Part shown: positions 37,032-55,995 of the stretch, in pieces
Layout of the letters: every line of letters begins with the position of its first letter
Position numbering within the stretch: position 1 is the first letter of the stretch
Assembly (NCBI GenBank): GCA_020853975.1
Contig: JADYXW010000015.1
Coordinates: 124,001 to 188,000, forward strand
Source of the DNA: Phycisphaerales bacterium
GTDB lineage: Bacteria > Planctomycetota > Phycisphaerae > Phycisphaerales > UBA1924
Direction: 5' to 3'
DNA length: 64,000 nucleotides
Notes under the pieces: generated by a model
The model's database searches: none
The model's input: the letters and a program-made list of their open reading frames with translations, nothing else
Told to the model about the DNA's origin: nothing
Program-made: the position numbers and the translations under genes

Positions 37032-37115
37032 AGATCGTGGTCTGACAGGGTCCGAAGCAAGACAATCCACGCTGCCGGAGGTCGGGGCGTGCGACTCACC
37101 AGGAAGGGGTTCTCA

Positions 37116-37646
37116 ATGAACATGCTGACTCGCGTAGCGATGGTGGTGGTGGCGGTGGCGACGGTGGTCCTGGCGACCGGGTGCCAGCAGAGCGTGCGCG
37201 GTTGGAAGGGTGACCTGGTCATCACGCCCGACGCCAGCCTCCGGGACTCCTCGGGCAAGATGCCCCCCGTCGAGGTGGACGTCGTGGCCATCAATGAAAC
37301 CGATGAGATGGTTCGCGGCTACCCGGTGGACAACTGGTTCTCCGGCGAGGACAAGCAGCGTGCCTCCTGCGCCCCGTACACCAAGTCCCTCGCCTTTGGC
37401 CCCGGCGCCGAGAGCGCGATCGTGATCTCCAAGAGCGATCCCATCTGGAAGAAGTGGGAGGAGCGCGGCTACAAGGACCTGGTGGTCTTTGCCACCGCCC
37501 GCAGCATGCGGGCCTCCCCCGGCGGGTTCGACGGGCGCCGGAAGGTCATCCCTCTCACGAACGACAAGTGGGACGTGGGGCAGATCAACTTCGAGGTCAA
37601 GTCCAGCGGCGTGGAGTGCCCCACGCCCATGAAGATCCAGAAGTAA
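37116..37646 (+). CDS. Lipoprotein in the TssJ position of the T6SS-like locus
   Basis: 176 residues from the ATG at 37116, chosen for AGGAAGGGG just upstream; a GTG at 37089 is a weaker start. Signal peptide MNMLTRVAMVVVAVATVVLATGC with a lipobox-like ATGC (Cys23). The mature 150 residues alternate hydrophobic beta stretches (VEVDVVAINETDE, YKDLVVFATARSM, VGQINFEV), fitting a small beta-sandwich such as TssJ, the outer-membrane lipoprotein that holds TssM. The match to TssJ is by size, topology and neighbourhood rather than strong motif identity. Confidence 0.55.
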   Translation: MNMLTRVAMVVVAVATVVLATGCQQSVRGWKGDLVITPDASLRDSSGKMPPVEVDVVAINETDEMVRGYPVDNWFSGEDKQRASCAPYTKSLAFGPGAESAIVISKSDPIWKKWEERGYKDLVVFATARSMRASPGGFDGRRKVIPLTNDKWDVGQINFEVKSSGVECPTPMKIQK

Positions 37647-37680: not shown

Positions 37681-40600
37681 ATGCCGAACTTCGGACGATT
37701 TGAGGCCTACGACGAGTTTGGCTCGAGCGGGCCCTACGCGGTATGGCGCGCCCGCCCTGCGGGCACCGAAGGCCCGGGCCCCGCGGTCGTCAAAGCCTGC
37801 CTCACGCAGGACATGCTCGCTGATGAGCAGGTCGTGGAGAGGCGCGCGGCGAGGTTCCTGGCTTCGGCGGAGTTCCAGCGCGGGCTCGCGGGCGACGGCT
37901 GGGCCCCGATCAGCGACGTGGGGCGGCTGCCCACCCACGCCTACTACATCACCGAGTGGTACCCGAGCACGCTGGAGCGGGTGATCGAGGCCCGCAGCAT
38001 CGCGGGCCTCGCGGAAGAGGACCCGGTCTCCGGCGCCAAGGCGGTTGTACACCTGATCTCAGGGATCACCCAGGGGCTGGAGCGGGTGCAGGCCGCGTCG
38101 GGCCGCGGGCACGGCAACCTCAAGGCTACCAACGTGCTCCTGAGGCTCGGTGACGATGGCGACCTGGCCGGGGCGGGAGTGGCGCTCGCCGACCCTGCGC
38201 CGCCTGAGACCATCGGGTCAGATTCGGTGCGCGACGACGCGAGGGCGATCGCCTCGCTCATCCACAGGCTTGTGACCGGGCGCCCCGCGCCCGGGGCCGG
38301 CGCCGTGCAGGTGGGGCCGGAGTGGTCCAGGCTCGGCTCGCCCGGCCCGGGCGAGGAGCTGAGGCGAGTCTGCGAGGCGCTGCTGAACGTGCAGGCCGGT
38401 GCCGCGCCGCCAACGCCCGCGCAGGTGAGGGAACAGCTCGCGGCGTGCCTCCGCGCCAAGATGGTGCGGAAGAAGAGCCCGGTGCCGCTCGTCGCGTCCG
38501 TGGTGGGCGTGCTGCTGGTGGGCGGGGGCGTGGCGGGGTACTTCCTGACGCGGCCCGATGAGCCCAAGCGCAGGCCCGGCGCCGATCCGCGAGAGCCGAC
38601 GCCCCAGGCGTGGCAGGCCACCACGACCAAATTGCTGCAGGACGCGGAGAGCACAATGCTCACTGTCCGGCCCTGCATGACGGACGACCAACTCGCGCGA
38701 TCGGACGAGCTCGGGCGGCGCCTGGCCAAGGCCATGGAGGGGCTGCCACTTCTGGCCTCGGCGGCATGGCCCCAGGGAGAGGGTGAGGCCGTCCTCGCGG
38801 GCCGTGCGGCGATGACGAAGCAGATCGAGGAGGCGGAGGCGGAGATCGGCGCGGTCAAGGCCGCCGCCCTGGGTCTCAAGACCGAGGTCGGCGACTGCAG
38901 CGAGGAAGTCGACCCGAGGCGTCCGGATCGCCAGCAGTGGCTGACGGAGCGTGAGGCGAGGCTCAAGGCGCAGATCGCGGCAATGACGACGGAACTTGCG
39001 GCGGAACTCTCGGCAGCGCCGGACGAGGCGCTGCGGGGGGCGGTCACGGGCCTGACAGACCAGGCGACGGCGATGGTGCAGAAACTGGACGCGGTGCGTG
39101 CGCAAGAGTGGCCCACGGTCTCGGCGGGTGGCGACTCGGAGGCGATCAAGGCCGCGCGCGAGTCCCGCGCGAGGATCCGCTCCGATGTGCAGAGTCTGGC
39201 GAACGAAGTGGGGCAGGTGACGCAGGCGGCGGAGAAGACGCTCCGGGACAGCCGCGATCGGGTGAAGGGGTATCTGGACGCCCGTTCGCGCGACCGGGAC
39301 AAAGTGTCATCGTCGGACAGGCTCCGCGAGGCGTACGCGGTGGCGATCTCGGCGGTGAAGCGCACGGACCCGACGTGGGCGGAAGCCAAGGCGAAGGCCG
39401 ATGCAATTCAGGCATGGATCGGCGCAGTCGACCGCGAGCTGGCGATCGACCTCCAGGTGGCGATGCCCCCGGGATCGCAGGTGCGTCCGGACCCTGCGGG
39501 CCGATTCTTCAGCCAGGCGAGAGAGCGTGCGATCGAGGCGGCGGTGAGGCCGGTCGAGGACCGCGGCGGCATCCCGAACTCCGAGGCGGACCTGGCGCTC
39601 GCAACCAAGGAAAAGGCGGCGCTAGTCGCGCTCGCGGAGGAGATCCGCACGCTCCTGGGCCAGGCCGGGCGCATCGAGCAGCTCCTCGCGCGAGCGAGCG
39701 GTTACGACGAACCAACGGACGGCGCGAGCGTGAAGTCCCTGCTGGAAGCGATCGAGGGCTCGCCCCGGCTCGCGGATCTTGAGGCCTCGGTCGAGGTGGT
39801 GGTCGAGCGCGCCAGGCGACTGCGGACCGCGGCCGGCACTTCGGGCGTCGTGCCCGCGTCGGCGGGGCTGAAGGACACGGGTGGGGACCCCGCCCGCGCG
39901 TCAGAGGCCATCACGTTCTGGCGCGCGCTCCGTTCCGCCGGGTATCCGGCCGATGCAGCCCAGATCGCCGAGGCCCCGGCCCTGGTGAACCAGCAGCTCC
40001 TGCCCGCGCTCCGCGGCATGGGCGACAAGGCGCGGGGTGAGCAGCTCGCGAGCGAGGCCGTCGACGCGATGCGCGGCGCCTGGTTCGCATTCGTGCACGA
40101 GAAGGCGGGCGGCGACGCGGCCTCCGTGGACGCGGCGTTCAAGGCCTCCGAGGCCTATGGCCTCAGCGAGCAGGACCTCAGCGCAAGGCTCGAACCTTTC
40201 GCCAAGTTCAACCGCGAGCGATGGAAGCTGCTTGCGACCCTCGACAGCGTGGCGTCCATACCCGACCGCAACCAGCAGATCTCCCGGCTCCAGCAGCTCG
40301 CGGCGGGGCTGCAGGGAGCGGCGCAGACACTGGGCGTGGGCGGCCGGGCCGACGTGCAGGACCTCTTCACGAACAAGCGCAAACTTGCCCCGTATCTCGC
40401 GGGCAAGTTCTCCAACTTCGAGGAGGTCGGTCCCGCGACGCCGGGCGCCGCTGCCCGCTGGAAGATGGAGGAGCAGGACGAGGACAACGGCCTGTGGGCC
40501 GTGTACAGCCTGGGGGGCCACCGCCTGCGGTTCCAGCGTGTGGGCGAGAGCGAGGAGCCCGCGAGCTTTGTCTGCACGACAGAGGTCAGCGTCGGCCTGT

Positions 40601-41553
40601 TCCAGAGCGTGATGCAGACCGGCAGTGCCTGGCAGGACGTGCGGGGCAAGCTGACGATGCTCCCAAAGAACGATCAGCGCAAGGGGCCACGGGCGTGGGT
40701 CTGGGACGACGCGGGCCTGGCGATGGGCGTGAGCCAGCCGACGAGCGGTGCGGACCTCAACGGCCGGGGCTGGTTCCGCGTGCTCCCGGGGGACATCAAC
40801 GCCGCGAATGGCCCGCAGGTGGCGCTCTATCCGCAGGGGAGAGAGCCCCCGCCGCCTTCCGCCGCGAGCCCGGTGAACTACGTGTCGACAGACGGCGCGC
40901 TGTTCATGGCGGCACTGATGGGCTGTCGCGTGCCGACGGTCGATGAGTGGACCCAAGCCGGCGGGGCCGGTGGGGGCGCGGCGAACCGTCGAGACAGCGT
41001 GTGGCAGGGGCAGCACGCCCACTTGCGTGCGCAGCTCGATGCGGCGCCCGAAAAGGACCGGATGAGCCTGCAGAACAACCTGCCCTGGCCCGGCGCGGAC
41101 ATCTTCACGCCCCCGGAGGCGGCGCCCGCGCCCGCGGCCGCGGACGGCGACCCCGCGGTTGCCCAGTCAGACTCGACGCTGTGGTTCCAGCCCGTGACCG
41201 AGGGAACAACCGCGTTTGAGAATCTCGAGGGCAACGTGGCGGAAATCGTGCTGGCCAACGAAGCCGCGTATGTCCGGGCTTCCGTGCCCCCGAAGGAGGG
41301 CCTGCTCGGAGCGATCAAGTCGGCGGTCAAGTCGGCGGACGTCCGTGTGGTGGGCGCCTCGGCGCTCTCTCCCGCGGGTGTGTCACCATCGACGCCCTAC
41401 GGTGTGAAGAGTGTGAGCGCGTACTGGTCCGATGTCGGGTTCCGCCTCGCGTTCTCAGCAAGCGCGGGCGGCGGTGGGGGTGGACGCCTGGCGGAAAAGC
41501 TGCGACGAATCCTCACCATCGACACGCCGTTCCTCACCCGCACCGGCGGGTGA
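37681..41553 (+). CDS. Pseudokinase - membrane helix - coil - FGE-like fusion (PpkA/TagR-type)
   Basis: 1290 residues. Residues about 1-255 read as a Ser/Thr kinase fold: a degenerate glycine loop (EFGSSGPYAVW), the ATP lysine in AVVKACL (Lys38), the catalytic loop HGNLKATNVLL (144-154), in which HRD is His-Gly-Asn so the catalytic Asp is lost while Asn151 is kept, a remnant DFG (ADP) and the late helix DDARAIASLIHRLVTGRP. One membrane helix follows at about 266-287 (PLVASVVGVLLVGGGVAGYF), then some 650 residues of helical, charged coil. Residues about 955-1275 match the FGE/sulfatase-modifying-factor fold: CRVPTVDEWTQAGG, LEGNVAEIV and YWSDVGFRLAF, without the catalytic cysteines. In Pseudomonas type VI systems PpkA kinase is controlled by the FGE-like TagR; here both are one chain. 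Likely a signalling receptor of the locus. Confidence 0.75.
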   Translation: MPNFGRFEAYDEFGSSGPYAVWRARPAGTEGPGPAVVKACLTQDMLADEQVVERRAARFLASAEFQRGLAGDGWAPISDVGRLPTHAYYITEWYPSTLERVIEARSIAGLAEEDPVSGAKAVVHLISGITQGLERVQAASGRGHGNLKATNVLLRLGDDGDLAGAGVALADPAPPETIGSDSVRDDARAIASLIHRLVTGRPAPGAGAVQVGPEWSRLGSPGPGEELRRVCEALLNVQAGAAPPTPAQVREQLAACLRAKMVRKKSPVPLVASVVGVLLVGGGVAGYFLTRPDEPKRRPGADPREPTPQAWQATTTKLLQDAESTMLTVRPCMTDDQLARSDELGRRLAKAMEGLPLLASAAWPQGEGEAVLAGRAAMTKQIEEAEAEIGAVKAAALGLKTEVGDCSEEVDPRRPDRQQWLTEREARLKAQIAAMTTELAAELSAAPDEALRGAVTGLTDQATAMVQKLDAVRAQEWPTVSAGGDSEAIKAARESRARIRSDVQSLANEVGQVTQAAEKTLRDSRDRVKGYLDARSRDRDKVSSSDRLREAYAVAISAVKRTDPTWAEAKAKADAIQAWIGAVDRELAIDLQVAMPPGSQVRPDPAGRFFSQARERAIEAAVRPVEDRGGIPNSEADLALATKEKAALVALAEEIRTLLGQAGRIEQLLARASGYDEPTDGASVKSLLEAIEGSPRLADLEASVEVVVERARRLRTAAGTSGVVPASAGLKDTGGDPARASEAITFWRALRSAGYPADAAQIAEAPALVNQQLLPALRGMGDKARGEQLASEAVDAMRGAWFAFVHEKAGGDAASVDAAFKASEAYGLSEQDLSARLEPFAKFNRERWKLLATLDSVASIPDRNQQISRLQQLAAGLQGAAQTLGVGGRADVQDLFTNKRKLAPYLAGKFSNFEEVGPATPGAAARWKMEEQDEDNGLWAVYSLGGHRLRFQRVGESEEPASFVCTTEVSVGLFQSVMQTGSAWQDVRGKLTMLPKNDQRKGPRAWVWDDAGLAMGVSQPTSGADLNGRGWFRVLPGDINAANGPQVALYPQGREPPPPSAASPVNYVSTDGALFMAALMGCRVPTVDEWTQAGGAGGGAANRRDSVWQGQHAHLRAQLDAAPEKDRMSLQNNLPWPGADIFTPPEAAPAPAAADGDPAVAQSDSTLWFQPVTEGTTAFENLEGNVAEIVLANEAAYVRASVPPKEGLLGAIKSAVKSADVRVVGASALSPAGVSPSTPYGVKSVSAYWSDVGFRLAFSASAGGGGGGRLAEKLRRILTIDTPFLTRTGG

Positions 41554-42010: not shown

Positions 42011-42067
42011 AATGGCGTCCCGTCGGGGGCGGGGTTGTGGCGTGGCACTTGCGTGGGAGGAGGCGGG

Positions 42068-43036
42068 TTGATCGAGCCAACGAGCGAGACGGGCCGCAAG
42101 GCGATGACGCTTGCCAATCGGCTGCGCGTGCTCTACGCGGAGCTGTCGGACCAGACCGGAGACATGCGGGGCGAGCAACTGCGGGACGAGGTTCAGCGGG
42201 CGCTTTCTTCCCTGCAGCCCAGCGCGCGGGAGCCCTTTCTTCAGGAACTTGTCCGCCAGTTTCCGTTGTGGTCTGCGAGCGATCGCGACCCCGCGCCGGC
42301 GCCGCCGCGTCCGGCACCGGTTTCCGCCTCGGTGCCCGCGGTCTCGGAGCCCCGGGACCCCAAGTCCGTCGCGGAGAAACTGATCGAAGTGACCAAGGGT
42401 CTGGGCGAGGCCGAGAAGCAGCAGATCGCGGCGAGGCTCAGCGTTGCCGGGCTGCTGCCCAGGCCGACGGCCTCTGCGGCTGCCCCGGCGGCGGCCGGCC
42501 CCAGCGGCGCCGTGAGCGCCTCGGGGGCGGCGGACCTTCGGAAGCACCTGGGCATGCCCGCCGATGCGCCCATCGACGCCGGCAAGGCCGTGGAGCTGGC
42601 GGCGGTGCTCGCGGAGTTCGTCCTCAAGCTCGAGCCCTACGCGTGCATGTTCTGGAAGGACATCGCACCGGACGCCAAGAACCAGGTCTACCAGACGCTC
42701 AACCGGGACCTGGGCAAGTTCATGTCCGGGGATGAGAAGGTCACCAAGGAGGCGGTCTCCAAGGGCGTGTTCAACCTCCGCAGCCTGGTGTCACTCCTGC
42801 TCAAGGGCGTCTCCGACGCGGGCAAGCAGTTCTCGCGCGATCACATCTCCCGATTCTCGGTCGACGAGATCACAAAGGCGGCGGGCCCGGGGACCCTGAT
42901 GACCAGCAAGGACGTGCTCTGCTGGAAGCAGTATGTCAGGCAGATGGAAGGAGTGGACGCGGCGTCGTTGGAGAAGAGGCTCAAGTCGGTCATCGCCAAG
43001 GACGTCGATGCCGGTCTCAGTCAGGTCATCAAGTGA
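42068..43036 (+). CDS. T6SS-like-locus protein of unknown family
   Basis: 322 residues from a TTG at 42068, chosen because GGAGGAGG precedes it; an ATG at 42104 would have a poorly placed site. N-terminal about 90 residues: helical (LRVLYAELSDQTGDMRGEQL), then a Pro/Ala-rich linker, then a C-terminal all-helical domain of about 150 residues (KAVELAAVLAEFVLKLEPYA, DLGKFMSGDEKVTKEAVSKG). Position directly before tssK and the shape of the helical domain are reminiscent of the C-terminal domain of Fha/TagH proteins, but there is no FHA domain and I see no firm motif. No signal or membrane helix; probably a cytosolic partner of TssK/TssL. Confidence 0.55.
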   Translation: MIEPTSETGRKAMTLANRLRVLYAELSDQTGDMRGEQLRDEVQRALSSLQPSAREPFLQELVRQFPLWSASDRDPAPAPPRPAPVSASVPAVSEPRDPKSVAEKLIEVTKGLGEAEKQQIAARLSVAGLLPRPTASAAAPAAAGPSGAVSASGAADLRKHLGMPADAPIDAGKAVELAAVLAEFVLKLEPYACMFWKDIAPDAKNQVYQTLNRDLGKFMSGDEKVTKEAVSKGVFNLRSLVSLLLKGVSDAGKQFSRDHISRFSVDEITKAAGPGTLMTSKDVLCWKQYVRQMEGVDAASLEKRLKSVIAKDVDAGLSQVIK

Positions 43037-43118: not shown

Positions 43119-44540
43119 ATGTCAAGCATCGGACATGTTCACTGGCACGAAGGGCTCTTCCTGCAGCCCCACCACCTCCAGACCATGCACCGCGACCTCC
43201 TCGAGGGCTCGTGGCGAGAGCGGAGGCTGTCGTGGGCGTTTCCCTACGGCGTGACCGAGTTGCGCATCTCTACCGACGCGCTGGAGAACATGCTCATCCG
43301 GGTTGACCGCCTCCGGGCGGTCATGCCCAGCGGGCTGGAGATCGACGTCCCCGGCAACGCCGACCTCCCCGCCCTGGACATCAAGAGGGTCTTCCAGGCT
43401 TCGTCCGGGTCGTTCCTCGTGGGCCTGGCTGTGCCGGTGTGGCAGTCCACCCGGGCGAACACGGTCGACTCCGGTGGTGGCGGGCTCGGCGCACCGGGAG
43501 GGGCGGCCCGCCGCGCCCTGCAGGACGAGGCGAAGGTGAAGAGGCTCTACCGCGTCGCGGAGATCCAGAGGCCCGACGAGAACACGGGCGAGAACGCCCA
43601 GGCCATGATGGTCCGGCGGCTCAACGCCCGGCTGGTCGTGGAGGGCGAGGACCTCAGTGATCTCGAGGTGCTGCCTCTCATGCGCATCATGCACTCGGCG
43701 GAGGAGCAGACGCTTCCGCGGCCTGATCCCTCGTTCATCCCTCCGTGCATGGTGCTGGGCGGCAACCCGACGCTGCGGAACATCGTCCGCGACCTTGCGA
43801 ACGCGGTGGACGCCAGCCGCAAGGAACTGGTCAACCAGATGACCCGCGGCGGGTGGGTTCCCGAGAACATCAAGGGCCCGCAACTGCTGATGGTGATGAG
43901 GCTCCGCACGCTCAACCGGTTCGCGGCGACGCTGGCCCCGCTGGTGAGCGGCGGGGTGGGTGTCGCCGGGACGATGAGCCCCTTCGACGCGTACCTTGCG
44001 CTGCGGGAGCTCCAGGCGGAACTCGCGGCCCTCACGCCCGATCGCGACCCCTTCGAGGGGCCCAAGTACGACCACGATAACCCGGGCGCCGTGTTCATGG
44101 AGATGGACAAGCGCATCCGGCCCCTGCTCCGGGGTGACGTGCAGAAGCGGTTCCTCTCCCTGCCTTTCACCAAGGACGGCGCCGCCATCTCGTGCGCGCT
44201 CACCGAGGAGCACCTCACGCAGCCCAACGCGTACTTCCTCGGCATCAAGACCAAGGCGGATGCGGCGGTGCTCGCGAAGCTCGTCGAGGACCAGGACAAG
44301 TTCAAGCTCATGCCCAAGAGCATGGTGAAACTGAACATCTATGGCATGAAGCTGGTCGAGGACCGGCACCCGCCCCTGGAGCTGCCCAGCGCGAACGACC
44401 TGCACTACTTCCGAGTGGAGATGGCGCAGAGCCAGAAGATGTGGGAGCGGGCGGCGGGCGAAAAGGCGCTCGCGATCCGCTGGCCCGAGCTGGAGCCCTT
44501 GGATTACCAGGACATCAGCCTCTACATGACCGTGCCCTGA
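43119..44540 (+). CDS. tssK: Type VI secretion baseplate-membrane connector TssK
   Basis: 473 residues, normal for TssK. The diagnostic N-terminus is VHWHEGLFLQPHHLQTMHRD (7-26), followed by GVTELRISTDALENMLIRVD and, later, LTEEHLTQPNAYFLGIKTKA. AGAAGGA lies upstream of the ATG. In known systems trimeric TssK binds the baseplate TssF/TssG and the cytosolic domains of TssL/TssM, docking the needle onto the membrane complex. Its genes TssF/TssG are absent from the window. Confidence 0.93.
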   Translation: MSSIGHVHWHEGLFLQPHHLQTMHRDLLEGSWRERRLSWAFPYGVTELRISTDALENMLIRVDRLRAVMPSGLEIDVPGNADLPALDIKRVFQASSGSFLVGLAVPVWQSTRANTVDSGGGGLGAPGGAARRALQDEAKVKRLYRVAEIQRPDENTGENAQAMMVRRLNARLVVEGEDLSDLEVLPLMRIMHSAEEQTLPRPDPSFIPPCMVLGGNPTLRNIVRDLANAVDASRKELVNQMTRGGWVPENIKGPQLLMVMRLRTLNRFAATLAPLVSGGVGVAGTMSPFDAYLALRELQAELAALTPDRDPFEGPKYDHDNPGAVFMEMDKRIRPLLRGDVQKRFLSLPFTKDGAAISCALTEEHLTQPNAYFLGIKTKADAAVLAKLVEDQDKFKLMPKSMVKLNIYGMKLVEDRHPPLELPSANDLHYFRVEMAQSQKMWERAAGEKALAIRWPELEPLDYQDISLYMTVP

Positions 44541-44593: not shown

Positions 44594-45277
44594 ATGAACC
44601 TGGTCGAGATCTGTGAGCCGCTGTTTCAATACGTCTGCCGTCTGAACCGCGTCGGCCGCAAGGGCGGCCGGGTGGACTACGGCACCGTGCGCGCGGAGTT
44701 GAAGGCGATCTTCGTGGACATGAAGTCGAAGGCGGACGGGGCCGGCCCACTCTCAGGCGCGTACGCGGAGGTGGAGCAGGTGCTCGTCTTCTTCGCGGAT
44801 TCGATGATCCTCAATAGCAAGCTCCCCCCCGGGTGGAAGCCCCTGAGCCACGAGCGGGGCGAGCTGGGGTTTGAGGAGAAGTTCTGGGACCTGCTCGAGG
44901 ACACGCTCAAGGACCCCTCCGACAGCGCCACGCAGCGGCTGGGGGTGTTCTATGTGTGCATCGGGCTCGGGTTTACGGGGTTGTACACGGGCCAGCCGGA
45001 CTACATCCGGCGCAAGATGCTCGAGATCTCCGCGAGGCTGCGCGGCATGATCGACGCGGACCAGGCCGGGCGGATGTGCCCCGACGCGTACGACAACGTG
45101 GACACGCGCAACCTCACGCAGCCCCCCAACCGGAGCATCGTGGGGATGCTGATCGTGCTGGTGGTGATGGTGGGCGTGCTGCTGGTGTCGTACGTGAAGC
45201 TGTTCCAGGACTCGAGCAGTCGGCTGACAACGTCGCTGGAGCACGTGCAGAAGGCGGGAGAGCAGACGGGCGGGTGA
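44594..45277 (+). CDS. tssL: Type VI secretion membrane protein TssL (DotU/IcmH family)
   Basis: 227 residues. The cytosolic helical DotU domain fills residues 1-175 (EPLFQYVCRLNRV, the LGFTGLY turn at 125-131). One membrane helix follows (about 181-203, SIVGMLIVLVVMVGVLLVSY) and a short outer tail of about 24 residues, with no OmpA or peptidoglycan-binding domain. GGAGGAA at the ribosome site. TssL sits in the inner membrane, binding TssM and TssK. Confidence 0.92.
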   Translation: MNLVEICEPLFQYVCRLNRVGRKGGRVDYGTVRAELKAIFVDMKSKADGAGPLSGAYAEVEQVLVFFADSMILNSKLPPGWKPLSHERGELGFEEKFWDLLEDTLKDPSDSATQRLGVFYVCIGLGFTGLYTGQPDYIRRKMLEISARLRGMIDADQAGRMCPDAYDNVDTRNLTQPPNRSIVGMLIVLVVMVGVLLVSYVKLFQDSSSRLTTSLEHVQKAGEQTGG

Positions 45278-45331: not shown

Positions 45332-48300
45332 ATGCTGGGCAGCTTTGCCAACCTCCCAAGGCCGGTGCAGGCCGTGGTGATGCTCGCGTCGGGCGCGAGC
45401 CTGACGTCGTTCGTGCTCGCCGCGGTTCCGGGGCCGTACCAGAGCTTTTTCATGTACGTCACGATCGGCATCGTGGCGGTGGTGGTGCTGCTGGCGCTCT
45501 TCAAGCTTGTGCTGATGCTGCGCGACAAGGCCAAGAGCGGCCCGTTCGCGAGCATGCTGAGCAAGGGCGCCAGGGGGGCCGCGGACCCCGCGCTGAAGGC
45601 CCGCATGGATGATCTGCGCCGGAAGTTCGAGGAGGGCGTCACCACGTTCAAGCAGGCGGGCAAGGACCTGTACAGCCTGCCCTGGTACCTGCTCGTGGGC
45701 CCGCCGGGCTCGGGCAAGACGGAGGCGCTGCGGCACTCCAACGTGGGCTTCCCGCCGGGGCTGCAGGACCCGCTGCAGGGCTCGGGCGGCACGCTGAACA
45801 TGCACTGGTGGTTCACGAACCACGCGGTGGTCATCGACACCGCGGGGCGCATGTTCATGGAGGGCGCCGACGAGGGAGGCGGGTCCGAGTGGCGAGAGTT
45901 CCTGAAGCTGCTGAAGAGCGCGAGGCCGAACTGCCCGGTCAACGGGCTGCTGCTGGTGATCTCCAGCGAGAGCCTGCTGAAGGACGGCGCGGAGAAGATC
46001 GAGCAGACCGCCGGGGCGATCGCCCGGCAGCTCGATGTCGTGCAGCGCACGCTCGACGTGAGGTTCCCCGTCACGGTGGTGGTGACGAAGTGCGACAAGA
46101 TCATCGGGTTCCGCGAGTTCTTCGAGCACATCGGCGACCCGAACCTGCAGCACCAGATCCTTGGATGGAGCAACCCCTCGCCCCTGGACGAGGCCTTCAA
46201 GCCCGATCAGGTGGACAAGCACCTGGAGTCCGTGCGTCAGAAGCTGATGAAGCGCCGCATGGGCCTGATCCAGAACCCCGTGCACACGACCGACGCGAAC
46301 GCCCGGCGCACGGACCAGATCGACGAGATGTTCGAGCTGCCCGACAACCTGGTGCGGATCGCGCCGAGGCTGCGCCGGTACCTGGAGATGATCTTTGTCG
46401 CGGGCGAGTGGAGCCCCAAGCCCCTGTTCCTGCGTGGCATCTACTTCACGAGTTCCATGCGCGAGGGCCAGGCGCTGGACGTGTCGCTCGCGCAGGCGCT
46501 CGGCGTCGACGTGGAGTCCATCCCCGGCAGCCGCGACTGGGACCGCGAGAAGTCGTACTTCCTCCGCGACCTGTTCATGTCGAAGGTGTTCAAGGAGAAG
46601 GGGCTGGTCACCCGCGCGACCAACGTCAGCAAGGCGCTGGCGAAGCAGCGCGCCCTGCTCGTGGGCGGCGCGATCGCGACGGCGGTGGTGCTGGGCGGGC
46701 TGACCGTGCTCGGCTACTTCCAGTTCAACGCCTCGCTGGGGCCGCCCAGCAAGACCTGGTCCGCGGTGCGGGGCGCGATGGTGGGAGACCCCGGGCGCGA
46801 CATCACCCCTCTTGACCCCAAGGAGACGAGCCTGATCGCGCGGTCCACCGACGCGGGCGGCACGGGCTGGGTCTACCAGGGCCGCAAGGACTTCACCAAC
46901 CTCGATGTGCTGGGCTCCGACATCGTGAACCCGCTGGAGCTGATCGTCGAGACCGGGTCGTACAAGGCCATCGACCCACCCCTGATCGCGCGCCCCGCGG
47001 CCCCGATGCTGGGATTCCGCAACTCCTTCCTGGACTCGCAGGAGGCGGCGCACCGCAGGGTGATCGAGCACACCACGCTCAGCCCGCTGCTCGAAGCGGC
47101 CCGCAGCCGCCTGGAGCAGGAGAAGGACTGGGGCCCCGACGCGGTCGCGGCGCTGGCGCAGCTCATCCGGGTGCAGACGTACTCCTACAAGTCCAAGCCG
47201 GCGTTCGACGAGGGGCCGAGCCTCGCCGATCTGAAGGACGCGGCGAAGGACGTCCGCCTGCCCACGGACCGGGGCGAGATCCCCGCGATCGACGTGGACG
47301 CGCTCTTCCGGTACGTGCTCGGGCCCGCCGCGGACGAGGCCAAGGGCTATGCGGGCGACCGGAGCAAGGTTCGTGAGGCGGTCAAGCGGGCCTATCCGAA
47401 CGGTCTGGGCGCGATCGAAGTCTCAGCGCTGCTGGGCGGGAAGGACGAGACGAACCGGCGCGTGAATGAGCGTGCCGCGGCCAACCTCGCGGAGCGCATG
47501 CGCACGGGCGGTTCGCCTACGGGCGACATGGGCGCGCTGCTCATGCTCCAATCCGGGCTTGCGGAGTTTGCCGCTGCCGAGGCGCAGCTCCGCGCCCACC
47601 CGATGCTGCGCGCCGGCGCGACCGGGGCCGCGGGCCTGCCCCGCACCGTGGAGCAGTACGACACGTTCGCCAAGGAAGCGGGTGCGCAGTTCAAGCGCCT
47701 TGCCGACGCAAAGGCGAAGGTCGATCAGGCTGTGACGAGGCTGGGCTCGAAGGCGGACAACCCGCTGGACGCGCTGACAGCCGCGGGCGAGCAGTGGGAG
47801 CGCGAGGCGGGCTCGTTCTTTGACCAGCTCATCCAGCAGCTCCCCAAGGGCCTGGACACAGGCCTGGAGGGCAAGGCGGCGGAGCTCGCGGAGAAGGCGT
47901 TCAACGAGCGGACGCCCGAGGAGCTGAGGTCGCTGCTCACCAAACTGGTGGAGCACCGCAGGACTGTGGTGGCGGCGGTCAAGGCCTCGCTGGAAGCCGT
48001 GCGGGCCGACGTGCAGCGTTCGGCGCCCCTCGCGGTGCCGGGGCGCACCTCGGCGCAGGTCGACGCGCGGGCCTACGCCGCCCGGTACGCGCTCTACGAG
48101 CTGGGCTCGGGAGAGCTGACGGCGGCGGCGCAGCCCGTGGGGGCGGTGACCTCCGTGACAGCGAAGATCGACCAGATCGACGCCGGGCCCCGGCGCGTGG
48201 GCGAGCAGGCGCAGCCGTGGCTCTCCTGGACACCCGCCCAGGCCGGCCTCAAGGGGCTCGCGCCCGACCAGGTGACCTCGCTCACGACCGATCGCGACGA

Positions 48301-49894
48301 GGCCGAGCGGCTGGCCCGTCGCGTTTCGGAGATCGCGGGTGCGCGCCGCGTGTACGAAGCCATCCGCCAGGCGATCGCCGACTGGCCCAAGGACGTTCCC
48401 GCCCTCCGCGAGCGGGTGAAGGCTCTGGCAGATGCGAAGATCGAGGGCGGCGCGCGGCGGGCGGAAAGGCCTCGGCTGCTGCTCACGGAGATGAAGGACG
48501 GCGGCGAGTTCGACCGCGTGTACTTCGTCGAGGCCGGGCGCGAGGTGATGGGCGACTGGGCCCGCGTGAGGACGCTCATCGAGCCCGCGTCGGGGGCCGA
48601 GCGCCAGGTGATGGACGCGGAAGCGCTCAGGGGCGGTGGCTACCTCGCGGCGGGTCGCGTGACCGAGGACTACGTCGTGGAGTATGCCCGCTACTGGCGT
48701 CGCCAGGCGACGGACGCCACGCAGGTGAGCGTGAACACCTGGGCGGATTTCGCCGGGCAGATCGACGACATGATCCCGGACAACATCGTCGATCTGAAGC
48801 AGCTTCAGGACGTGACGACGGCGGCGCTGGACTCCATCCCGAGCGTGCTCATGGCGCCCGCGGCTCTCTCGGATCACAAGACCGACGTGGCCAAGGCGTT
48901 CGGCGGGCTCGCGACCGAAGCCTTCAGCCGCGAGGGCGCGATCCGCGATTCGCTGCGCAACTGGCGGCGGCTCGCGGGCGTGCAGGGCGGTCCCGAGGGC
49001 GCCGTCGGGCTGCTGCGGGCGTCGTACAACGCGGGCGATGCCCAGGCGGAGTACTTCGCGCAGTACGGCAAGGGCGTCGCGTACTGGGATGGCGTGGTCC
49101 TTCGGGGCGTGGAGTTGCTCACCGAGGCGACCCAGGGCGACATCGCCCGCGCTCAGAACCTGCTCATGTCCTCGAACAAGGCGCCGCTGTGCTTCGGGCC
49201 GGCTTCCATGGGCGACCTGAGCCCGGATGAGCTCCGTGCCGTTGCCGCCGCGGCCTCGAAGGTGGCCAGCGGGAGCGGGGGCACCGGCACCACCGTCAAG
49301 CCCTCCGCGGGCATGGACCCTCGTGTGAACGACCTGCTCTCAAGGCTGTTCGGGGCGAACTTCATCAAGGCGACGGCGGAGCGGCAGACGTGGTTCACCC
49401 GCCTGCAGCGGGTTCTGGATTCGGTCGCGGGCAAGGACCCCGTCCGGCTGAGCCTCAACCTGCTCTCCGATGCGCCGCCCCAGGGCGCCGCGGGCAAGAC
49501 GCTGGCCGCGGACAGCGGCTACAAGTTCGCGGCCCTCTACGTGAACGACAAGAAGGTGGGCGAGGCGTTCAACATCTTCAGCGCCTCGACGATCCCCGCG
49601 GACAAGGCCAAGGACCTGGTTGTGACTCTCCCGGCGCAGTCCAGCTTCATCGGGCTCTACCGCGAGGACCCGGGCCGGACGGATCGGGCGCCCGACGAGC
49701 GCATCGCGCTCCCCGAGCACTGGAGTCTGCTGGGGGCGATGCTCAAGCAGGAGCAGAGCGATCGCGTTGGGCCCGGCGTGTGGCGAGTCATGGCCTCCAA
49801 CAACACCATGTACCTGTGGCTGACCATCAAGATCGAGCCGGACGTGCCGGCACGGGCCGACTGGCCCAGCGTCAGCACGTGGCCCGGGCAGTGA
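45332..49894 (+). CDS. tssM: Type VI secretion membrane protein TssM (IcmF family), enlarged
   Basis: 1520 residues, longer than the 1100-1300 usual in proteobacterial TssM. Two N-terminal membrane helices (about 13-55), a cytosolic GTPase-like domain with Walker A GPPGSGKT (123-130), Walker B VVIDTAGR and NKxD-like VTKCDK. A third helix (about 446-470, LLVGGAIATAVVLGGLTVLG) leads to a roughly 1000-residue outer part, mostly helical, ending in a beta-rich domain (SLNLLSDAPPQGAAGKTL, MYLWLTIKIEPD) like the TssJ-binding end of TssM. AGAAGGAG precedes the ATG. It spans the envelope and links TssL/TssK to the outer-membrane lipoprotein. Confidence 0.92.
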   Translation: MLGSFANLPRPVQAVVMLASGASLTSFVLAAVPGPYQSFFMYVTIGIVAVVVLLALFKLVLMLRDKAKSGPFASMLSKGARGAADPALKARMDDLRRKFEEGVTTFKQAGKDLYSLPWYLLVGPPGSGKTEALRHSNVGFPPGLQDPLQGSGGTLNMHWWFTNHAVVIDTAGRMFMEGADEGGGSEWREFLKLLKSARPNCPVNGLLLVISSESLLKDGAEKIEQTAGAIARQLDVVQRTLDVRFPVTVVVTKCDKIIGFREFFEHIGDPNLQHQILGWSNPSPLDEAFKPDQVDKHLESVRQKLMKRRMGLIQNPVHTTDANARRTDQIDEMFELPDNLVRIAPRLRRYLEMIFVAGEWSPKPLFLRGIYFTSSMREGQALDVSLAQALGVDVESIPGSRDWDREKSYFLRDLFMSKVFKEKGLVTRATNVSKALAKQRALLVGGAIATAVVLGGLTVLGYFQFNASLGPPSKTWSAVRGAMVGDPGRDITPLDPKETSLIARSTDAGGTGWVYQGRKDFTNLDVLGSDIVNPLELIVETGSYKAIDPPLIARPAAPMLGFRNSFLDSQEAAHRRVIEHTTLSPLLEAARSRLEQEKDWGPDAVAALAQLIRVQTYSYKSKPAFDEGPSLADLKDAAKDVRLPTDRGEIPAIDVDALFRYVLGPAADEAKGYAGDRSKVREAVKRAYPNGLGAIEVSALLGGKDETNRRVNERAAANLAERMRTGGSPTGDMGALLMLQSGLAEFAAAEAQLRAHPMLRAGATGAAGLPRTVEQYDTFAKEAGAQFKRLADAKAKVDQAVTRLGSKADNPLDALTAAGEQWEREAGSFFDQLIQQLPKGLDTGLEGKAAELAEKAFNERTPEELRSLLTKLVEHRRTVVAAVKASLEAVRADVQRSAPLAVPGRTSAQVDARAYAARYALYELGSGELTAAAQPVGAVTSVTAKIDQIDAGPRRVGEQAQPWLSWTPAQAGLKGLAPDQVTSLTTDRDEAERLARRVSEIAGARRVYEAIRQAIADWPKDVPALRERVKALADAKIEGGARRAERPRLLLTEMKDGGEFDRVYFVEAGREVMGDWARVRTLIEPASGAERQVMDAEALRGGGYLAAGRVTEDYVVEYARYWRRQATDATQVSVNTWADFAGQIDDMIPDNIVDLKQLQDVTTAALDSIPSVLMAPAALSDHKTDVAKAFGGLATEAFSREGAIRDSLRNWRRLAGVQGGPEGAVGLLRASYNAGDAQAEYFAQYGKGVAYWDGVVLRGVELLTEATQGDIARAQNLLMSSNKAPLCFGPASMGDLSPDELRAVAAAASKVASGSGGTGTTVKPSAGMDPRVNDLLSRLFGANFIKATAERQTWFTRLQRVLDSVAGKDPVRLSLNLLSDAPPQGAAGKTLAADSGYKFAALYVNDKKVGEAFNIFSASTIPADKAKDLVVTLPAQSSFIGLYREDPGRTDRAPDERIALPEHWSLLGAMLKQEQSDRVGPGVWRVMASNNTMYLWLTIKIEPDVPARADWPSVSTWPGQ

Positions 49895-49918: not shown

Positions 49919-52900
49919 GTGGGCAAGGAAGGGCCTGTTCGGAACGCGCGCGTGCACCTGGCCGCCTTCGGGAAGCACCCGGGCTGGGATGATCACATCG
50001 AGGAGATCGGGCTGGATCACGAGGATCTGGTCCGGATCAAGCGGGAGCTCTACGCCGAGGGGCTGGCGGGCAACATCGACTCCGGAGCGTGGGAGAAGCT
50101 CCCGGACGAGCAACGCCTGCCCGCGTTCAAGCACCTGTTCTACTGGCGGCGTTCCGCGGGCCTGGTGATCGGGCGGATGTGGTCCAGCCGCGACGGCAAG
50201 GGGCGCACCAAGTACCCGATGGTTGTCTGCGCCATGGTCGAGGGCGTTCCCGACGCGTGGGCCATCCAGCACGTGCTGCCCCGCCTGGAGCAGGTGGAGG
50301 CCAAGTGCGTGCAGACCGGGTCCGCGGAGCTTGTCAGGCTTGCGATCGGCGAAGCGCGGCGCGGGCTCGAAGACCAAGCGGCCCTGCTCGCCACCTCCGC
50401 CGCCAGCCAGTCGGGCGATGACGCAGGGCTCATCCGGGCGCTCGTGACGAGCCCGGCCCTGAACATCCCCGAAGAGACCGGGGGCGGGCTGACCCGGGTG
50501 CTCTACGAGATCGACCGCGAGATGGGCGAGTTCAAGGGCGGCGCCGGCGCCAAGCGCACCGCCTCAAAGATCGTGGGTGAGGCCGGCGCCCAGCACATCC
50601 GCGTTCCCAGGTGCCTGCAGCCCGGGGGCGACGCCGCACGGGCCTGGATGCTCCTGCTCGCCCAGGACATCGCGGACGCGACATCTATCTTGGTCATCGA
50701 GCCCATGGACGCGGCGTTCGTGGACATCATCGTCGGCAACCCGCGCCCACAGCAGTTCTTCTGCGTCAGGGCCGGGGACAAGGGCCTCGCGCTGACTTCC
50801 GAGGTGCCCTACACGATCGATCCAGCCTTCAAGGCCTCGGCGTCCGAGCGTGTGAAGGCCTGGAGCGCCGGCAACATCAGGCTTGCGGGCCGGCGCGGGT
50901 CCGCGGTGGGAAGCGCGCCCGCCGAGGTGGCCGGTGATCGCAAGGGTTTCCCCCGAGGAGTGCTGCTTGCGGCGGGCGGGGTCATCGCGGCGATTGTCCT
51001 CGGTGTCGGGCTCTGGGCCGCGCTCTCGGGCGGACCGGGCGAGCCGGATCCGGCGCCGGCTCCGGAGGGACCCGGTCAGCAGGGCAACAGCACGCCGGTT
51101 CCGATTCAGCCCGCGAACATCGAGAAGCCCACTCCCCCCAAGCCCGCGCCCAGCTACGGGGCGGACGATCCGCGATCGGGCTGGGACATCGACGATCAGG
51201 TCACCCGCGCCCGCGCGCTCCTGGCGGCGCTGGAGGTAGAACTCGCCGCGGAGGGTCTGAAGCCCGATCCGGCGGTCAAGACCCGCATCGACCGCGCCGT
51301 CGACCGCGCCGACAACTTCGTGCGGAGCCGGGCGCTGTCCGCGGCGTCGCGCGATGCCATCGTGAGCGACATGACATCCGTTGATGGCGAGGTTCGTGCG
51401 GTGATGACGCAGCTCAAGAGCGATATCGACCGCAGCCACGAGCGGGTGCGGGCCTTCCTGGACGAAGAGGCGTCCCAGGCCCAGGTGAAGAGCGAGGCCC
51501 TGAAGGCGGCTTGGAGCACCGGGCTGCGGGCCATCGACCACACGAAGGGTTGGGAACATGCGCGCGCGCGACATGCTGCCGTCGTTGCGGCGCTGAAGGA
51601 GGCCGAAGGGCTGCTTGCTTCTTCGGGCGAGTTCAAGGCCCCGACGCTGGCGGAGGTGCAGACCCCCGCGCTTACGGCGGTCATCGACGCTCGGCGCGAG
51701 AAGGCCATGCGGGAAGTCGCGGCCGCCGCGGGCACGGGCGACTCGGCCCGTTCGGGTGACGCTGCGCGTGAGCTCGCGACCTGGACGGAGGAGGCCCGCG
51801 CGTTGTTTGCAAAGGCCGGGAAGATTAGCCAGCTCCTGGGCGGGGGTTACGCCTGGGCCGAAGCCGCCCCCGGCGGTGATTCCATCAAGGGACTTCACGA
51901 GCAACTCTCCGGGATGGCGGGGTGGGACGACTTCTCCGCGGCGCTCGCCGGGCTGAACGCCCGCTGCTCCGCGCTCAAGGACATCGCGGCGGGCGAAGAC
52001 CCCAACGCGCTGGTCGGGACGATCCGCAAGTCTCGGGCGGACCTCGCGAAACTCGGCCTCTCCGAGGCGAGCACCGCGTGGGGGAGGCTCGCCGAAGTTC
52101 CGGGTTGGCCCGCGAAGGCGGACGACGCGCGCGAAGCCGCCAAGGTGCTCAAGGACGACATGCTACCCCTCATCGGGCGCGAGCCCGGCGCGGAGCGGCG
52201 CCGGGAGCTCGAGGCAGGCGCGAAGCAGGCCGGGGCGCGGGTGTGGGGCCGGTTCGCGGGGACCGCCGCCTTGGACGCCCAGGGGGTCGACGCGGCGTTG
52301 GAGACCCGTGGGGCGCTGGGCGCGGACGACCTGGTCGAGCAGGGCGTGCCGGACTGGGCCCGGTTCAATCTGGCACGTGGACGGCTCGCAAGGGCCGTGG
52401 ACGCGGCGGACGCCCTGCCCGGGCGTGCGCGGGTGGACGCCATCCGGGCCGCCATGGAAGGCTTCGTGGCTCTTTCGTCCGCACTTCCGGTCGCGGCCAC
52501 GGGCGAGGCCAAGCAGTTGGTCGGTGCGATGAAGGAACTGCTCGACTCGCCCGGGGAGATTGACCTGGCAAAGCTCGGTCCTGGCGGGGCGGGCTTCGAG
52601 CTCGTGTCGTCGGACGCGGAGTCGGTGGTGTACCGACTAGGGAGCACTCCGGTCGAGTTCCGCCGTCTGGAGCCGACGGGCGAGGGAGTGTCTTTCGTCT
52701 CCACCACCGAAATGTCGGTGGGCGCGTTCATTGACCTCGTCGGGGGCCGGGCAGAGGAGTTCCGGACCATCATGCCAAAGTCGGACGCGGGGGGGATCGA
52801 CCCTCGCGTGGGTCCGCGCGTGTGGGGATGGCAGGGATCCTCTCTCGCGGTGAGTTCGCCCGCGGGCCCGGGCGACCTGGGCCAGGGCTGGGTCCGGATC

Positions 52901-53605
52901 AAGACGCAGATGGCGGGGCGCGAGTACTACCCGGCCGGGATGAAAGTCGATCCCCCGAGCAGGGATCACCCGATGCAGTACCTCTCGCCGCACGCCGCCG
53001 TGCTGGCGGCTCGCCTCGCCGGGTGCCGCCTGCCGACGGTGGACGAGTGGACGGCGGCAGGAGGAGCGGTGGGAGCAACGAACCTGCGAGACGCGTCGTG
53101 GAAGAAGGTGCACGATCACCTTCGCCAGTTTGCGTCTTCGGGGCCGGAGTTCCCGGGGGCGGGGCTGTTCTGGCCCACCGGGGTCACCCGCAAGAGCCCT
53201 CTCGACGACGATCAGCCGGCTGTAAGCAACGATGACAACCTGGTTTGGTTCGCACCCGTCACGGCTGGGGAAGGCAAGTTCAAGCACCTGGCCGGCAACG
53301 TGGCGGAGTATGTGACCCATGAGGCAGTGGATTGGGAGAGCGTGGTAGCGACCCGAGAGGCCGTGGACGGCGCTGTTGGAAAGGGCGAAAAGGTGCGGAT
53401 CGTGGGAGGTTCGGCCCTGTCCCCCGCGGATGTGAAGCTCGATCAGGCCTACCCGCTGACCCCCCAATCGCGAGAGGGGTACTCCGATGTCGGGTTCCGT
53501 CTCGCGTTTGGCGCCCCGAGGGCGGCCGCGGCGGCAAGCACGGCCGAGCGGGTCCGGAAGGCGTTGACCGCATCGGGCTACCTTACTGGGGAGCAGCGCA
53601 AGTAG
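49919..53605 (+). CDS. TagF (ImpM) - membrane helix - coil - FGE-like fusion
   Basis: 1228 residues from a GTG with AGAAAGGA upstream. The first 300 residues are TagF-like: FGKHPGWDDHIEEIGLDHED, the LFYWRRSAGLVIGRMW core and GRTKYPMVVCAMVEG. One membrane helix (about 348-368, VLLAAGGVIAAIVLGVGLWA) is followed by a 500-residue, Ala/Glu-rich helical coil and then an FGE/SUMF fold from about 920 to 1210: GCRLPTVDEWTAAGGA, LAGNVAEYV and YSDVGFRLAFG, again without catalytic cysteines. The tail closely parallels that of the pseudokinase fusion, implying a duplicated module. TagF is a soluble repressor of type VI firing in Pseudomonas; the fused, membrane-anchored form with its own sensor-like domain is unusual. 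Last gene of the locus. Confidence 0.8.
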   Translation: MGKEGPVRNARVHLAAFGKHPGWDDHIEEIGLDHEDLVRIKRELYAEGLAGNIDSGAWEKLPDEQRLPAFKHLFYWRRSAGLVIGRMWSSRDGKGRTKYPMVVCAMVEGVPDAWAIQHVLPRLEQVEAKCVQTGSAELVRLAIGEARRGLEDQAALLATSAASQSGDDAGLIRALVTSPALNIPEETGGGLTRVLYEIDREMGEFKGGAGAKRTASKIVGEAGAQHIRVPRCLQPGGDAARAWMLLLAQDIADATSILVIEPMDAAFVDIIVGNPRPQQFFCVRAGDKGLALTSEVPYTIDPAFKASASERVKAWSAGNIRLAGRRGSAVGSAPAEVAGDRKGFPRGVLLAAGGVIAAIVLGVGLWAALSGGPGEPDPAPAPEGPGQQGNSTPVPIQPANIEKPTPPKPAPSYGADDPRSGWDIDDQVTRARALLAALEVELAAEGLKPDPAVKTRIDRAVDRADNFVRSRALSAASRDAIVSDMTSVDGEVRAVMTQLKSDIDRSHERVRAFLDEEASQAQVKSEALKAAWSTGLRAIDHTKGWEHARARHAAVVAALKEAEGLLASSGEFKAPTLAEVQTPALTAVIDARREKAMREVAAAAGTGDSARSGDAARELATWTEEARALFAKAGKISQLLGGGYAWAEAAPGGDSIKGLHEQLSGMAGWDDFSAALAGLNARCSALKDIAAGEDPNALVGTIRKSRADLAKLGLSEASTAWGRLAEVPGWPAKADDAREAAKVLKDDMLPLIGREPGAERRRELEAGAKQAGARVWGRFAGTAALDAQGVDAALETRGALGADDLVEQGVPDWARFNLARGRLARAVDAADALPGRARVDAIRAAMEGFVALSSALPVAATGEAKQLVGAMKELLDSPGEIDLAKLGPGGAGFELVSSDAESVVYRLGSTPVEFRRLEPTGEGVSFVSTTEMSVGAFIDLVGGRAEEFRTIMPKSDAGGIDPRVGPRVWGWQGSSLAVSSPAGPGDLGQGWVRIKTQMAGREYYPAGMKVDPPSRDHPMQYLSPHAAVLAARLAGCRLPTVDEWTAAGGAVGATNLRDASWKKVHDHLRQFASSGPEFPGAGLFWPTGVTRKSPLDDDQPAVSNDDNLVWFAPVTAGEGKFKHLAGNVAEYVTHEAVDWESVVATREAVDGAVGKGEKVRIVGGSALSPADVKLDQAYPLTPQSREGYSDVGFRLAFGAPRAAAAASTAERVRKALTASGYLTGEQRK

Positions 53606-53636: not shown

Positions 53637-53773
53637 TTGACGGTGGAGCGGCCGTGATCTAGGTTGGGTGGAGTTATTCAGCGCCCTGAGGGGGTGCGAT
53701 CGACGTTCGGGAGGGGTTGGCCCGGCTCGACCTCTCGGTGATCGCACCGCCTTGGCTGTCGCATGGGTGCGAT
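53637..53773. promoter_or_regulatory. Promoter and repeated GGTGCGAT element upstream of the TPS pair
   Basis: TTGACG (53637-53642), a 17-bp spacer and TAGGTT (53660-53665) form a promoter candidate. GGTGCGATC occurs at 53693-53701, as an inverted copy GATCGCACC at 53740-53748, and again directly (GGTGCGAT) at 53766-53773. The first two can pair as a 9-bp stem around a 38-nt loop. Position in the leader suggests a regulatory structure or a multi-site operator. Confidence 0.4.
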
Positions 53774-53795
53774 GTCAGAGAAAGAAGGTACTGGG

Positions 53796-55880: not shown

Positions 55881-55995
55881 CAATCTGTCCGGGTGTGGCG
55901 CTCCGCGGCGGCGCGGGGCGGGTACGAGAACGAAACCGAACGCTCCCCCGCGGCGCACATACAGGGCCCGGTGGAGGGTGGAAAAGAGGTCTGAG

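What the first reader, a model, noticed from the sequence alone, without database searches (positions are those of the whole stretch)
49919..53605. TagF fused through a membrane helix and coil to an FGE-like domain
TagF is normally a stand-alone cytosolic repressor of type VI secretion. Here it is tethered to a transmembrane helix (about 348-368), with a long helical coil and an FGE/TagR-like domain on the far side. This topology would let an envelope sensor control TagF across the membrane in one polypeptide, replacing the multi-protein TagQRST/PpkA relay. I know of no described protein with this architecture.
Basis: partly seen in the sequence, partly recalled or inferred. Interest (0 to 1): 0.85.

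Follow-up and report, generated by a model that had tools for sequence, protein, structure and literature searches.

The report
Membrane-anchored TagF with periplasmic sensor-like domain
In a planctomycete, the protein that normally floats in the cell and holds back the type VI secretion 'crossbow' is built into the membrane and carries, on the other side, the same sensor-like module that its kinase-like neighbour carries, which suggests that brake and accelerator read the cell envelope through matching antennae.

Summary
ORF 49919-53605 (1228 aa, directly after tssM) encodes TagF (residues ~7-316), a transmembrane helix (~347-369), a ~470-residue helical rod and a C-terminal FGE-like domain (~902-1226). 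Sequence profiles see TagF only sub-threshold (E=0.022), but an AlphaFold model (pLDDT 86.7) has TagF crystal structures as its top five matches. The C-terminal model matches formylglycine-generating enzymes, but the catalytic cysteine pair is absent. The fusion is no artefact: a relative with 92%-identical TagF has the same uninterrupted frame, and 23 of 75 TagF loci (Planctomycetota, one Verrucomicrobiota) carry TagF-TM-rod-FGE. Elsewhere TagF is soluble, TM-only or fused to other domains.

The new point is the partner. The same cluster encodes a kinase-like protein (37681-41553; HRD changed to HGN, DFG to DPA) with a homologous TM-rod-FGE module. So TagF did not replace the PpkA-type arm; it shares its module. 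FGE trees reject one origin for TagF-linked modules (AU p=3e-7). Best reading: paired negative and positive arms of T6SS membrane-complex assembly, both anchored in the inner membrane with matching periplasmic FGE-like domains. Signal, partners and repression are untested.

The parts
49919..53605 (+). TagF-TM-rod-FGE protein, 1228 aa, GTG start
   Evidence: intact in L051
49937..50866 (+). TagF domain (residues ~7-316), predicted cytosolic
   Evidence: HMM, AF2 model and Foldseek to TagF structures
50957..51025 (+). single transmembrane helix (residues ~347-369), predicted N-in
   Evidence: hydropathy and positive-inside count
51026..51187 (+). Pro/Gly-rich disordered linker
   Evidence: low pLDDT over residues 1-59 of the modelled piece
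51188..52591 (+). helical rod (residues ~424-891), predicted periplasmic
   Evidence: AF2 model
52622..53596 (+). FGE-like domain (residues ~902-1226) without catalytic Cys pair
   Evidence: Pfam, Foldseek, Cys check
37681..41553 (+). paralogous partner: kinase-like domain - TM - rod - FGE, 1290 aa (PK-FGE)
   Evidence: kinase profile; motif counts
37089..37646 (+). conserved lipoprotein gene beside PK-FGE (TssJ- or TagQ-like candidate, not shown)
42035..43036 (+). conserved T6SS-cluster protein upstream of tssK, no Pfam family
43119..44540 (+). TssK
   Evidence: Pfam PF05936 3.3e-59
44594..45277 (+). TssL/DotU
   Evidence: Pfam PF09850 3.8e-15
45332..49894 (+). TssM/IcmF
   Evidence: Pfam PF14331 2.4e-54

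Best explanation
An inner-membrane TagF. The N-terminal TagF domain lies in the cytosol beside TssL/TssM and, as in Serratia and Pseudomonas, holds back assembly of the T6SS membrane complex (inferred). A single TM helix and a long helical rod carry a non-catalytic FGE-like domain into the periplasm. Its neighbour PK-FGE, a kinase-like protein with PpkA-like layout, has a homologous module. I infer that the two FGE domains respond to a common envelope cue or partner, or to each other, so that the cue both engages the positive arm and relieves TagF repression where the machine is to be built. Shown here: domain identities, predicted topology, loss of FGE catalytic cysteines and of canonical kinase motifs, adjacency to tssM, recurrence, shared ancestry of the two modules. 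Inferred: repression, signal sensing, the pairing of the arms.
For: TagF fold. FGE fold without the Cys pair. One TM helix, positive-inside. tssM directly upstream of tagF in 61 of 66 loci that hold a tssM match. Module homologous between TagF and PK-FGE, 39% identity in the FGE part, in the same gene cluster; in G021 the TagF-linked and kinase-linked modules are sisters (100/99). All 30 genomes tested, most of them with fused TagF, have a P0002 match, and in most the kinase-like part was found. In Serratia TagF prevents membrane-complex assembly and tagF is tightly linked to tssM (PMC6082577). In Pseudomonas TagR, an FGE-sulfatase domain protein (PMC7253367), probably acts on the periplasmic domain of PpkA (PMC6082577), so an FGE-like domain already serves T6SS signalling there.
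Against: No function was tested. No ligand or partner is known. The kinase-like partner has HGN for HRD and DP for DFG, so phosphorylation of Fha by it is doubtful, and none of the six FHA-domain genes in the genome lies in the window or on contig C27. Rod lengths of the two arms correlate across genomes only before related genomes are merged (rho 0.57, p=0.009, n=20; merged p=0.08; without G021 p=0.24), so geometric pairing is not supported. Relatives with soluble TagF keep PK-FGE, so tethering is not essential.
Confidence: 0.5

Rival explanations
1. The module is a docking device and not a sensor: the rod and FGE-like domain bind a structural T6SS part (TssM periplasmic domain or the lipoprotein) and only keep TagF concentrated at the membrane complex, as a constant local brake or an assembly checkpoint.
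For: TagF is linked to tssM. Other relatives tether TagF by a bare TM helix (L071, L072, L074, L084) or by TPR-type regions (L092, L097, L101), so anchoring itself seems to be what recurs. In Acidovorax, TssW binds both TssM and PpkA, via their periplasmic domains in two-hybrid tests (PMC12607579).
Against: A long rod ending in the same FGE-like domain as the kinase-like arm is more than anchoring needs; FGE-like domains of a more typical sequence were joined to TagF in L063 and L116 too.
Confidence: 0.3
2. The TagF domain has lost repression and the protein is now a structural or positive component of the membrane complex.
For: Sequence is far from classical TagF (TIGR03373 E=0.022); the canonical targets (Fha in the cluster, active PpkA) are not evident.
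Against: The TagF fold is kept, the motifs GKHPGWDDH and DGKGRxxYP are conserved over the family, and soluble forms sit at the same place after tssM.
Confidence: 0.15
3. Active formylglycine-generating enzyme fused to TagF.
For: Pfam FGE-sulfatase over the cut-off and the FGE fold.
Against: No Cys pair between the GGS and GFR motifs in any of the 78 rows scored; nine rows have a single Cys there, the window has none.
Confidence: 0.02
4. Assembly or frameshift artefact that joins two genes.
For: Many relatives have a soluble TagF.
Against: Same frame, no indel, over 1236 codons in L051 and third-position-biased differences through the linker; the same architecture in 22 further named loci and in G021.
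Confidence: 0.01

Closest known systems
TagF (T6SS accessory repressor; P. aeruginosa PA0076, Serratia SMDB11_2256)
   Same: Fold, gene position after tssM, motif pattern
   Different: Here membrane-anchored with a ~850-residue extension predicted to be periplasmic; the studied TagF proteins are treated as soluble
TagF-PppA fusion of Agrobacterium tumefaciens (Atu4331)
   Same: TagF joined in one chain to another part of the regulatory pathway
   Different: PppA is a phosphatase-type domain; no TM or periplasmic part described
PpkA with TagR/TagQ in P. aeruginosa H1-T6SS
   Same: Kinase fold - TM - periplasmic part, with an FGE-like protein as periplasmic input and an outer-membrane lipoprotein in the pathway
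   Different: There FGE-like TagR is a separate protein; here FGE-like domains are covalently part of both the kinase-like protein and TagF, and the kinase motifs are degenerate
TssW-PpkA-Fha axis of Acidovorax citrulli (PMC12607579)
   Same: An envelope protein governs the kinase arm and positions the membrane complex; positioning of PpkA did not depend on its catalysis
   Different: TssW is a separate outer-membrane protein; TagF is not mentioned in the paper

Membership tests
TagF | TagF fold | tested here: met
   Top five PDB hits are TagF structures
TagF | Score above curated profile cut-off | tested here: not met
   TIGR03373 14.9 bits vs 41.2; no Pfam TagF_N hit. Filed as a divergent TagF by fold and context, not by profile
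TagF | Gene in a T6SS operon next to tssM | tested here: met
TagF | Post-translational repression of T6SS | not testable with these tools
   needs deletion and Hcp secretion assay
FGE-sulfatase domain | Pfam model above cut-off and FGE fold | tested here: met
   26.3 vs 23.3 bits; Foldseek
Catalytic FGE | Copper-binding Cys pair | tested here: not met
TagR | Sequence kinship to TagR rather than to other FGE-like proteins | not tested
   no TagR sequence was compared
PpkA (partner 37681-41553) | Protein-kinase fold | tested here: met
   Profile A2 hits StkP kinase 9.6e-8, by sequence profile only; the single sequence hits no Pfam kinase model
PpkA (partner 37681-41553) | Canonical HRD and DFG motifs | tested here: not met
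   HGN and DPA in the window; across 46 rows the HRD Asp is D in 4 and N in 31; the DFG Asp is kept in 31 of 46 but F and G are mostly not
TPP pathway | FHA protein encoded in the T6SS cluster | tested here: not met
   Six FHA genes, none in the window or on contig C27

The most novel reading that the evidence does not exclude
A T6SS regulatory design in which activator-type (pseudokinase) and repressor (TagF) are twin transmembrane receptors with homologous FGE-like ectodomains, working without threonine phosphorylation, and in which the ectodomain has been attached to or exchanged onto TagF more than once.
Probability: 0.3. Interest if true: 0.8.

Novelty: new variant of a known kind. Interest (0 to 1): 0.62.

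Why it matters
How envelope signals reach TagF is an open point: in the studied systems its repression is overcome through Fha and a separate kinase arm. A TagF that spans the membrane would make the link between envelope state and T6SS repression directly testable in one protein, and the shared module with a kinase-like partner gives a simple hypothesis for balanced control in Planctomycetota and Verrucomicrobiota, whose T6SSs appear little studied in the papers searched.

Tried and rejected
Pfam TagF_N search of the own genome rang nowhere, controls included: uninformative. Sequence profile of TagF against PDB gave only helical designs: superseded by the fold search. Viral contigs: no hits. 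Rod-length co-variation of the two arms: not significant after merging related genomes. One origin of fused TagF judged on TagF domains: not rejected (AU p=0.36), against clear rejection on FGE modules (p=3e-7), so repeated fusion and one fusion with later module exchange both remain open. Active FGE: rejected on the cysteines.

Full report
Observation. The ORF at 49919-53605 is 1228 codons long and starts 25 bases after the stop of tssM. It follows tssK, tssL and tssM. The rest of a T6SS is in the same genome: tssA, tssB and tssC further along the same contig, and tssH, tssG, tssF, tssE, an impE/tagJ-type gene, hcp and a second tssC on contig C27.

Domain identity. Pfam finds only the FGE domain (1013-1196, E=7e-6, above the cut-off). 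Fourteen homologues share the motifs GKHPGWDDH and DGKGRxxYP. The AlphaFold model built on that alignment is good (pLDDT 86.7) and its top five PDB hits are TagF from A. baylyi and P. aeruginosa. I take the TagF assignment as settled at the level of fold and gene context, not of function.

Membrane helix and topology. The best hydropathy window after the TagF domain is at residues 347-365 (where numbering runs from the stop-to-stop frame, +8). Five positive residues precede it and none follows within 25, which predicts the N-terminus inside.

Periplasmic part. The model of residues 348-1228 shows a disordered linker, a run of helices of about 470 residues and a C-terminal mixed domain; the model's significant PDB matches are all formylglycine-generating enzymes. 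The catalytic Cys pair is absent. The TM helix falls in a low-confidence stretch of that model, so it rests on hydropathy.

Not an artefact. L051, from another genome, has the same frame with no indel over 1236 codons; differences are concentrated at third positions, even in the fast linker (21 and 17 at first and second, 44 at third, over 90 codons).

How common. Of 75 loci found with the TagF profile in named genomes, 23 have TagF-TM-FGE in one frame and one (L055) has the FGE part behind a TAA; four more have TagF with a TM helix only, and five have a TM helix plus another long C-terminus, of which L063 and L116 hold FGE domains of a more typical sequence and L092, L097 and L101 have TPR-like repeats. 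G021, from the class search, is a further fused case. Most others are soluble. Fusion is thus recurrent in Phycisphaerae-type genomes, with one case titled Puniceicoccales (Verrucomicrobiota).

The partner. The window also has a 1290-residue protein at 37681-41553 with a kinase-like N-terminus, a TM helix, a rod and an FGE domain. The profile of its N-terminal family matches the StkP kinase (9.6e-8). The catalytic loop is HGNLKATN, not HRDxKxxN, and DFG reads DPA; across 46 relatives the HRD aspartate is kept in 4. It is therefore probably a pseudokinase, though activity was not tested. All 30 genomes searched with it as query have a match. A small lipoprotein is encoded beside it in many clusters.

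Origin. In an FGE-domain tree of 77 rows the TagF-linked modules do not group together; holding them as one clade is rejected (AU p=3e-7). In G021 the TagF-linked module is sister to that genome's own kinase-linked module. The TagF-domain tree does not reject one clade of fused TagF (p=0.36). Repeated fusion, or one fusion followed by exchange of the module with the kinase-linked paralogue, both fit.

Mechanism. In Serratia, TagF prevents assembly of the membrane complex and PpkA-phosphorylated Fha overcomes it (PMC6082577); in Pseudomonas and Agrobacterium TagF binds Fha (PMC10482370, PMC5995506). In Pseudomonas FGE-like TagR is a separate periplasmic activator of PpkA. The planctomycete design makes FGE-like domains part of both the kinase-like protein and TagF. 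The most economical reading is a pair of anchored arms with a common periplasmic input. A docking-only role is the main rival.

Limits. Function, ligand, partners and expression are unknown. The genomes are mostly metagenome-assembled, and record titles are unreliable for some (L051, L073 and L087 carry cyanobacterial or Variovorax names although their TagF proteins group with those of planctomycetes). The literature searched is open-access only, so absence of a description there is weak evidence of novelty.

Noticed in passing
53763-55880 and 55978-63999 (continuing to L184:15249): A ShlB/FhaC-type transporter followed by one 3757-codon open frame with a TPS secretion domain: a two-partner secretion pair lying between the TagF gene and tssA-tssB-tssC.
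   Followed up: partly
37089-37646: A conserved lipoprotein gene beside the kinase-like FGE gene in many planctomycete T6SS clusters; no informative Pfam family; could be a TssJ or TagQ counterpart.
   Followed up: partly
42035-43036: A conserved ~330-residue protein upstream of tssK in most of these clusters with no recognised family.
   Followed up: no
L037:7432-11307: A third kind of paralogue: TM-rod-FGE with neither kinase-like nor TagF domain, directly after the kinase-like FGE gene in G054.
   Followed up: no
L063:9929-12127 and L116:8211-10724: Verrucomicrobial TagF-TM proteins ending in a more typical FGE domain, which suggests a separate joining of TagF to an FGE-like domain.
   Followed up: partly
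L055:9956-13783: TagF-rod and FGE parts separated by a single TAA in an otherwise fused arrangement; a real split or a broken gene.
   Followed up: no
L051, L073, L087: Records titled Leptolyngbya, Cyanobacteria and Variovorax carry planctomycete-type T6SS TagF genes; probably misnamed or contaminated bins.
   Followed up: no
G000:C27 (L185): A second T6SS gene block with TssH, TssG, TssF, TssE, ImpE/TagJ-type, Hcp and a second TssC.
   Followed up: partly
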